Shown one piece after another: positions 26,701 to 29,700 of a stretch of DNA of 64,000 nucleotides (position 1 is the stretch's first letter; each line of letters begins with the position of its first letter). This stretch comes from Topomyia yanbarensis (lineage: Eukaryota > Arthropoda > Insecta > Diptera > Culicidae): positions 32,338,343 to 32,402,342 of the forward strand of contig NC_080671.1 of assembly GCF_030247195.1 (NCBI RefSeq). The letters are read 5' to 3'. Made by a program: the position numbers and the translations under genes. Under the pieces are notes generated by a model. It did no database searches, was not told the origin of the DNA, and was given only the letters and a program-made list of their open reading frames with translations.

Positions 26701-29700
26701 ACTATGAAAGGAATTATCGAATTATGTTATGAGATCAAAGAGAAACAGAACAATTATAGTGAAATAAGTAGTTGCTTGTAAGGGCCAATACTGCCAACTT
26801 CTTTAACCGTATTTATTAATAATCGGTTGATCAAATCTTCTATTTCGGGTTAGCAAGTTAAAAAAATCTGTTGTATAATAGTGTGGAATATAAACAAAAA
26901 AAAATCACGTAAGTCAAACAAAAACATTATCTAAAAGTGATCAAGCAATCTACTTTAAAGTTGATGATGTTGACATTTTCAATCAGACTCATACTTCTAA
27001 TCAGACCATCAACTTCCATCGTTGTGGTTCATTAAGTTCGTTCACTAGAACTAATTAATATTGTGCTACTAATAACTGCAAGGTAGGTTTTGCTTGCTTC
27101 AATTGTTCCTACTAACTTATGTAAAGGCCAAATTACTAACATGAATGAGAAAATATAAAAAGTGCTTCTCTGCTACTAAAGTCGATTATTTGCTTGTAGA
27201 CACTTGCTCTGGTTCAGTATTCTATAAAAAAATCACATTTCTGTGAATTAAAACCGTTGCGTTGGTTTATAACTATTAAAATCTAGCATTTACTACATTT
27301 CATGGGTCTACATTGGTACCTTCCTGTGTAGTATTGAAAACGAGTCTATTCTTTACATTACACCCTGTTCTGAATTTCGATCGAGTTGATCCTACAAACG
27401 ATACTTATTGGCACTATCAACTCTGAATTCAAATTTGATTCGATCAAAGTAGGCCTCCGCTCGAAAAGCAGAACTTGAGTAATAGTTCGCTTGGTAATAT
27501 TTGAACTCAGCAGATTTTCCTCCGAAAATGGAGCTGCTGTTACGCATCCAAAGTCATAGTATTACCACAACTCACAACTTTACTTACCGCACAAACATGA
27601 TCATGGCTACCAACTTGTTCGACATCATAAACAAAAAACAAACCAGAAACTAATGCCATCAAAAAACAAACGCTTGTTTCGCTTTTCAAAATGATCCCTT
27701 TATTAACTTTAATTTCTTTCGTTTCTATTCCATTCCCGATCGCCACCCGTAGGACGAAATCATCAAAACATGCCGGGAGAACGTTCGCTGCCTGGAAACG
27801 GTGCTGCTGTCCCAACCGGGAACGGTTCTGACGGCGGCCAAGTGTCAGGATTTACGAGGTAAGCGGATAACGAAACAATTGCATCATCATCATCGTCATC
27901 GCAAAACTGCTACCACCGCCAGTTCTAATCCTCCGTTCAATCACAACCGTCGCAAAGTGTACCGGTACGATCGCATTGACGACAGTCGTGACAATGACGA
28001 CGAACACGTTAACGACGATGAGAAGTTTCAGAGTAGCACTAGCAAACAGAATGTAGTCAACCGGACGATAGACGCCGTCGAAAGCGACAAAGTAGGCAAT
28101 GACGAGGAAAACGAGGACGACGACGAATCGTCCGATGACGATAGTGGCGTGAGGGTGGAGAAAGGAAAACCGCCGCCCCACCGGAAGCTGGTTGTCGTTC
28201 GGCAGGAATGTCGATGCGCCCGAATCACCCGTTTCATAGCTACTGTGATCGATTTTTTGCTCGATCTGGGCAATTTGTTGCGTAACTTTACATTGTACAG
28301 ATTTTTCGTTGGTATGCTTAATGGATTTTACCGCCGATTGCTGTGAATGGCAAGGAAACGGCATTGGTGATCGAGATCTAGGTACAGAATTGACAGATTT
28401 TGAGTGTCATCTGAGTTAGAAGCTATTCATGATATTTTCAGTTTGTGACAGTATTCATTGTCTTATGTTAGTTGATTAGTTCCAATATTTTTTCACGTTG
28501 TTTATTGCACATCATTAATGTATTTGTTATCACCACTGCTTTTTATTGCACATATGTAGTTAATTGCTTTTTTGTAGTAATAAAATTCATTTTGCCTTTT
28601 CTAAATTGAAAAAAAAAAACTTTTTCGGCTTTTCATTTTAAGTAGCTATTTGCGTGTGACTGTCTAAAATTTTGCTTTTTCTATGTTTGCTATCATTTCT
28701 ATGTTTGTTTGTTTATAGTTTTTAAAAAGAGCAAATGTTAGAGTGAACCTTTTTTCAACCATTCTATGATTTGGATTTACACTATTTCTTTCTGCAAATT
28801 TCACGCTTTCCTACTTCTATCTACGCCCCACTAGGTAAAATTTCAACACTAACACTTTTTATTCTGAAGCTAGACACCCTAATCATCCGTCAATTCTGTT
28901 AGTCCTAACCGATCACCACTGACCATTTCCACTAATTTTCCCGATCACAATCACACTGTCGGCTGTCTGCTAGAACACTATCGTGTTCGTCCGTCCAAAC
29001 GTGTGCACTGACTGTTTGTTACGTTGCATCTGATTTTCATTGCACTGCGTGTTTCTGAAACCTCTGACCTTGCTGTTATTATTTTACTTGTTTGAAGTTC
29101 TGATACATGATACTTGAGAGGGAACACCTGAAAGATGATATCCGGTGGTGGGTTTGTGTTTTGTTGTTCCGAACAATAGGTAAGTAGACTCGGAACACAT
29201 GTCTGGGCACATGATAGCACGTGCTGCCGGGGAATTCATCACAACTCGTGAAGTCGTTGGTTTGTTTTCATTCATATGTAAGTTTTTTCATGAATGATCA
29301 TTGCTAATCGCTTAGTTCGTTATAGGGTATGGGAACCAGTTATTGCTATAATATCAGATAACTATCAATCAATAATTGAAAATTAAAATTGTATATTGTT
29401 AATGTACATAATCCTTAGTAACAATTTAAGTTTTATGGAAGTTTTTTAAGCCACTCATAAAACTTAGGTTGCACTTGTAGTATGCTATAAAACTTCAATT
29501 TGTTACTTGGGAATTGGTTCTATTGTCATAATTGGTTTGTTAACTCCAAATACCGAATAAACACAGGAAATTGGACATGGGCATTTTTGCATTGTTATGG
29601 AAGCATGTACACTTTTAGTGTCTACTCTTTGGAAAAACCGAATAAGGATGGAGAAACAGAAATCTTCTGAGAATTTTATCAGGTTCAATGTAACCTCTAA

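What the first reader, a model, noticed from the sequence alone, without database searches (positions are those of the whole stretch)
27753..28600. Alternative klar 3' end encoding a probable lipid-droplet domain
Seen: exon 4 reads through its donor in frame for 162 codons, with coding-like composition that stops at the TGA, an acidic then amphipathic tail, and AATAAA 233 bp on. Known: Drosophila Klar-beta lacks KASH and gains an LD domain by extending an exon. Inference: the mosquito gene keeps the same isoform switch, so one locus would serve both nuclei and lipid droplets.
Basis: partly seen in the sequence, partly recalled or inferred. Interest (0 to 1): 0.85.

Follow-up and report, generated by a model that had tools for sequence, protein, structure and literature searches.

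The report
Mosquito Klar lipid-droplet tail exon
A mosquito gene called klar can apparently end in two ways, one tail for the cell nucleus and one for fat droplets; the fat-droplet tail is really encoded here, but the same arrangement was already published for fruit flies and other mosquitoes.

Summary
The window carries the 3' half of klar (klarsicht), almost certainly of the mosquito Topomyia yanbarensis: its KASH isoform is 100% identical over 816 aligned residues to that species' NCBI protein. Exon 27753-27858 splices to five KASH-branch exons, but also reads through its GTAAGC donor in frame for 162 codons to TGA 28344-28346, with AATAAA at 28579. The last 46 residues are a conserved core: 35-37 of 43 residues identical in nine Anopheles predictions, 25 of 43 in one unnamed protein, presumably insect. 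The ~116-residue linker is unconserved. The core is predicted helical, and no 18-residue window of the KASH isoform is as amphipathic. The interpretation (a Klar-beta-like lipid-droplet isoform) is the best explanation but not new: Yu et al. 2011 (PMC3051913) describe exon 15ext in D. melanogaster and matching sequences in 16 other fly species, mosquitoes included. This is a new member of a known kind. No transcript or localisation evidence could be examined, and no Drosophila sequence was available to align. Small additions: a short post-core end here, a linkerless form in P0003, and probable LD-plus-KASH misannotations in Anopheles.

The parts
8088..8705 (+). klar shared coding exon A (residue 892 of P0037 onward; earlier exons lie upstream of the window)
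   Evidence: AG/GT borders; joined translation found exactly inside P0037
8935..9841 (+). klar shared coding exon B
10340..10692 (+). klar shared coding exon C
27753..27858 (+). klar exon D, by position the counterpart of Drosophila exon 15; donor GAG|GTAAGC, phase 1
   Evidence: 35 of 35 residues identical in P0037 and P0004; donor listed
27859..28346 (+). read-through coding extension (counterpart of Drosophila exon 15ext), ending in TGA 28344-28346
27859..28205 (+). unconserved, charged linker, about 116 residues, with a His-rich start
   Evidence: pLDDT per block of ten 42-62
28206..28343 (+). conserved core ECRCARITRF...GFYRRLL (46 aa), presumed lipid-droplet targeting part
   Evidence: 35-37 of 43 identical in nine Anopheles proteins, 25 of 43 in P0003; tblastn of A. 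farauti 41 of 51 identical, E 6e-24
28347..28605 (+). presumed 3' UTR; AATAAA 28579-28584, TGTA at 28519, 28555 and 28573, T-rich stretch after; the cleavage point near 28600 is inferred
43631..43800 (+). first exon of the KASH branch (phase 1 acceptor, DTVLCWEK...)
54164..54456 (+). KASH-branch exon
54523..54742 (+). KASH-branch exon
54805..55178 (+). KASH-branch exon
55237..55624 (+). last exon with KASH domain and stop
   Evidence: PF10541, E 4e-18

Best explanation
This is the klar locus of a sabethine mosquito with an alternative composite last exon. If the donor at 27858 is used, exon D is spliced across a 15.8 kb intron to the KASH exons and gives Klar-alpha (2033 residues), for the nuclear envelope. 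If the donor is skipped and the message is cut near 28600, translation runs 162 codons further and gives a Klar-beta-like protein of 1714 residues without KASH, whose terminal amphipathic helical part is expected to sit on the lipid-droplet surface and so bring motor regulation to droplets. Shown here: gene, frame, exon borders, conservation of the core, absence of KASH from the read-through product. Inferred from Drosophila work: processing choice, droplet targeting, droplet transport. Probability that it is a Klar-beta LD orthologue as such about 0.93; of droplet targeting in this species about 0.8.
For: Open 162-codon read-through, not expected by chance. tblastn of A. farauti P0002 to the window hits the core in frame with exon D, 41 of 51 identical, E 6e-24. 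Nine Anopheles predictions continue exon D into the extension, by GKR in seven and GRR/GRS in two. The core is conserved while the linker is not, as Yu et al. describe for a 46-residue stretch inside the 114-residue LD domain (PMC3051913). The most amphipathic 18-residue window (moment 0.651) starts at core residue 6; if the two cores start at the same place, that is one residue from the published helical-wheel stretch. None of the 2016 windows of the KASH isoform reaches 0.651. AlphaFold2 gives helix over most of the core, pLDDT 71-84 by blocks of ten, and a low-confidence linker. One match in the genome. One exon end, in one phase, serves both continuations.
Against: No RNA data were available. 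The 27 of 37 database proteins without the core all join exon D directly to DT[IV]xCW, including every Aedes, Culex and sabethine entry seen and T. yanbarensis itself, so no named culicine read-through isoform was seen; the set is clustered at 90% identity, which may hide one. The amphipathic moment is not remarkable against shuffles of the core's own composition (P 0.08 for the window, 0.03-0.13 over four proteins). The two structure models disagree on one helix or two. The Drosophila LD sequence could not be aligned.
Confidence: 0.85

Rival explanations
1. The extension is retained intron that happens to be open; the real gene always splices at 27858.
For: Consensus donor GAG|GTAAGC; every named culicine protein entry seen uses it.
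Against: 0 of 200,000 random intron frames are as long; the core is conserved in frame in nine Anopheles proteins and one unnamed protein.
Confidence: 0.04
2. The extension is a real coding end, but its core is a helix for the ER or another membrane rather than lipid droplets.
For: Yu et al. note weak additional GFP-LD signal on ER- or nuclear-envelope-like membranes (PMC3051913); a predicted helix is compatible with any membrane surface.
Against: The Drosophila LD domain is reported necessary and sufficient for droplet targeting in vivo (passage of PMC3051913).
Confidence: 0.1
3. The core is joined by internal splicing to the KASH exons, giving one protein with both targeting ends.
For: Six of nine Anopheles LD-bearing predictions run from the tail into the KASH-branch exons and five of them carry KASH. 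Two pairs of species share a join: stephensi and albimanus after DILK, epiroticus and coluzzii after ALAR.
Against: Four different joins occur among the six (after DILK, ALAR, ALAQ, SSG), as expected of automatic gene models; three of nine (P0002, P0007, P0009) instead run on to the same end ...DILKRLTIGII; the NCBI-named isoforms listed for stephensi (P0017) and albimanus (P0018) join exon D directly to the KASH branch. In the window the only GTAAG or GTGAG sites in 27859-28400 are the exon D donor and 28149, before the core; weaker donors were not scanned.
Confidence: 0.03

Closest known systems
Drosophila melanogaster Klar-beta, exon 15ext / LD domain (PMC3051913 and PMC3573039)
   Same: Begins immediately after the exon that precedes the KASH branch, lacks KASH, has a variable part and a conserved hydrophobic stretch of about 46 residues compatible with an amphipathic helix.
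   Different: Tail is 162 residues here against 114; three residues (RLL) follow FYR here, against 18 residues after the conserved stretch in Drosophila (51-96 of 114). Five KASH-branch exons here against three (16-18) in Drosophila. No expression or localisation data here.
Anopheles klar predictions with the tail (P0002, P0006-P0013)
   Same: Exon D continues into an extension with a linker and the core, 35-37 of 43 residues identical.
   Different: In the three that end without running into the KASH branch (P0002, P0007, P0009) 66-68 residues follow FYR, ending in DILKRLTIGII. Nothing similar was found in the window intron (best E 0.75).
P0003, klar-like protein of an unnamed source (Logan assembly)
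   Same: Same core after an exon-D-like stretch, no precomputed Pfam domain (so no KASH listed), 25 of 43 core residues identical.
   Different: Three residues between exon D and core, so the core there looks spliced on rather than read through; organism not known.

Membership tests
klarsicht (KASH protein) gene | C-terminal KASH domain on the long isoform | tested here: met
   PF10541, 65.9 bits against a cut-off of 23
klarsicht (KASH protein) gene | Exons give a known klarsicht protein | tested here: met
   1142-residue joined translation lies exactly inside P0037, named klarsicht protein isoform X2 of T. yanbarensis
Klar-beta / LD-domain isoform | Extension follows immediately on the exon before the KASH branch, in frame, without KASH | tested here: met
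   no Pfam match above cut-off in the tail
Klar-beta / LD-domain isoform | Conserved core of about 46 residues | tested here: met
   conserved against nine Anopheles proteins and P0003; not compared with Drosophila directly
Klar-beta / LD-domain isoform | Direct similarity to the Drosophila LD domain | not testable with these tools
   no protein named as Drosophila was returned by three protein searches; Yu et al. report the similarity for the fly species they examined, mosquitoes among them
Klar-beta / LD-domain isoform | Amphipathic helix in the core | tested here: inconclusive
   higher moment than any window of the KASH isoform and helix prediction, but P 0.08 against composition shuffles
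Klar-beta / LD-domain isoform | Transcript with its own poly(A) end | not testable with these tools
   AATAAA at 28579 only
Klar-beta / LD-domain isoform | Localises to lipid droplets | not testable with these tools
   needs a fusion protein experiment

The most novel reading that the evidence does not exclude
The LD core is an old, movable C-terminal module of klar that different flies attach in different ways: donor read-through in mosquitoes and Drosophila, direct splicing without a linker in P0003, and perhaps in some Anopheles splicing onward to KASH, making one protein that could hold lipid droplets against nuclei.
Probability: 0.06. Interest if true: 0.55.

Novelty: new member of a known kind. 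Interest (0 to 1): 0.25.

Why it matters
It gives the likely droplet isoform for an annotated mosquito klar gene and shows a culicine tail that keeps the core while the linker and the end after the core differ from Anopheles, which points to the core as the working part. The isoform switch itself, and its presence in mosquitoes, was already in print, so the gain is mainly annotation: no culicine entry seen here shows this end (a set clustered at 90%, so not conclusive), and several Anopheles models fuse it to KASH.

Tried and rejected
Chance open frame: rejected. AATAAA as proof of the 3' end: rejected as weak, about a 0.19 chance. A second coding piece matching the Anopheles end after the core in the 15.8 kb intron: none (best E 0.75). 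Pfam on the tail: nothing above cut-off, only NOA36 at E 0.11. Relatives in the viral and prokaryote contig sets: none confirmed, as expected for an insect gene. Drosophila or culicine Klar-beta proteins: none so named appeared in three searches; clustering at 90% may hide isoforms. Internal acceptors in the extension that could mimic the linkerless P0003 form: seven phase-compatible AGs, including one at 28165; by eye that one lacks a good pyrimidine tract, so not pursued. A first nine-exon join had wrong borders and a broken frame near its end; a border scan then found no match because one start was mis-set; corrected. A fold search was not run because the models are of modest confidence.

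Full report
What is there. The window holds the 3' half of klarsicht (klar) on the + strand. Nine exons bounded by AG and GT (8088-8705, 8935-9841, 10340-10692, 27753-27858, 43631-43800, 54164-54456, 54523-54742, 54805-55178, and the last, 55237-55624, ending in the stop) join to a 1142-residue open translation that lies exactly inside P0037, named by its source klarsicht protein isoform X2 of Topomyia yanbarensis, a sabethine mosquito. In a first, imperfect join the match was 100% over 816 residues, against 90% for the next protein (P0038, Malaya genurostris). The last exon has a KASH domain (PF10541, E 4e-18). In the own genome (1.17 Gb) 15 matches to P0037 lie from C2:31841006 to C2:32393963, about 553 kb; the window is C2:32338343-32402342, so six of the 15 are upstream of it and nine inside.

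The observation. Exon 27753-27858 ends in GAG|GTAAGC. Read through, the frame continues DLR-GKRITK... for 162 codons to TGA 28344-28346. None of 200,000 random starts in klar introns stayed open for 162 codons; 2 of 20,000 mononucleotide shuffles of the extension did. G+C drops from 0.49 to 0.30 after the stop. AATAAA is at 28579 with TGTA at 28519, 28555 and 28573; at the intron rate of 0.91 per kb an AATAAA this near has about a 0.19 chance. The exon D plus tail query has one match in the genome. An antisense frame of 184 aa overlaps the tail (27852-28406); I give it no meaning.

Relatives. Three protein searches gave 37 database proteins in all (P0002-P0038). By script, 10 of 37 hold the core motif ECRCA and 27 of 37 do not; all 27 join exon D straight to DT[IV]xCW, the KASH branch. 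The 10 are nine Anopheles proteins (farauti, stephensi, culicifacies, epiroticus, christyi, coluzzii, minimus, albimanus, dirus, as named by UniRef) and P0003, of unnamed source and presumably insect. Against the window's first 43 core residues the Anopheles ones have 35-37 identical and P0003 has 25. BLASTP of exon D plus tail to A. farauti finds exon D with GKR (33 of 37) and the core (36 of 44) as its two strong matches; the linker is not matched. GKR follows exon D in seven of the nine Anopheles, GRR in minimus and GRS in dirus. Since GGTAAG holds the splice donor, that part of the conservation can be explained by splicing alone; the core cannot.

Anatomy of the tail. The linker is about 116 residues, 22% D+E, 19% K+R, 14% S+T, modelled with low confidence (blocks of ten at pLDDT 42-62). 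The core is 46 residues to the stop. AlphaFold2 on the 197-residue piece gives helices 154-176 and 179-196 in the core (mean pLDDT 57.5, core blocks 72-84); on the 56-residue end it gives one helix 13-55 (mean pLDDT 74.1), so whether the core is one helix or two is open. The most amphipathic 18-mer starts at core residue 6 (moment 0.651); 0 of 2016 18-mers of the KASH isoform reach that value. Against shuffles of the core itself the moment is not remarkable (P 0.08; 0.03-0.13 over four proteins). Three residues follow FYR here. In the three Anopheles models that do not run on into the KASH branch (farauti, culicifacies, christyi) 66-68 residues follow, ending in DILKRLTIGII; nothing like that end was found in the window's intron (best E 0.75).

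What it most likely does. The window shows the same order of parts. I therefore read it as a composite last exon: donor use gives the nuclear-envelope form, donor skipping plus cleavage near 28600 gives a 1714-residue droplet form (length computed from P0037 plus the tail). The choice, the cleavage point and droplet binding are inferred.

Limits. No RNA evidence, no Drosophila sequence to align, no second culicine tail. All named culicine entries seen show only the KASH branch, T. yanbarensis included; the database is clustered at 90% identity, so this is not strong evidence of absence.

Odd points. Six of nine Anopheles LD-bearing predictions run on into KASH-branch exons, and five of them carry KASH. 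There are four different joins among the six, two of them shared by a pair of species (stephensi and albimanus; epiroticus and coluzzii). The NCBI-named isoforms listed for stephensi and albimanus do not have the tail. I take the fusions for gene-model artefacts, with the shared joins as the point against. P0003 has three residues between its exon-D-like stretch and the core, suggesting that the core can be attached by splicing without any linker.

Literature. Four searches of the paper library (two searches listed 15 of 56 and 10 of 125 papers) gave the two Klar papers above as the ones I used; the other papers were seen only as listings. The sequence-level claim for mosquitoes is in print in PMC3051913. 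These searches did not name Topomyia, so I make no claim about what is in print on that genus.

Verdict. Real, soundly read, and known in kind: a new member of the Klar-beta LD-domain isoforms.

Noticed in passing
30134-34953 (-): Pieces of a non-LTR retrotransposon inside the intron between exon D and the KASH branch: endonuclease (PF14529), reverse transcriptase (PF00078), RNase H below its cut-off; 33554-34150 gave no Pfam match and the rest was not scanned.
   Followed up: partly
22183-23355 (-) and 384-2799 (-): Further reverse-transcriptase-like pieces; the first matches PF00078. Of the second only 527-1579 was scanned and gave no Pfam match; its label rests on reading the translation.
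   Followed up: partly
60630-61319 (+): 229-aa open frame with a DDE_3 match just below the Pfam cut-off (27.8 against 28.6 bits); mariner-like by reading.
   Followed up: partly
47807-48011: Perfect TA repeat of 102.5 copies in a klar intron.
   Followed up: no
Anopheles P0006, P0008, P0011, P0012, P0013 (also P0010, without KASH): Database gene models that fuse the LD tail to the KASH branch, with four different joins among six species; probably annotation errors, but two joins are shared by pairs of species, so worth a long-read check.
   Followed up: partly
P0003: Unnamed klar-like protein in which the LD core follows the exon-D-like stretch almost directly, with no linker.
   Followed up: partly
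own genome C2:31841006-32393963: klar coding exons spread over about 553 kb, with the first about 497 kb upstream of the window.
   Followed up: no
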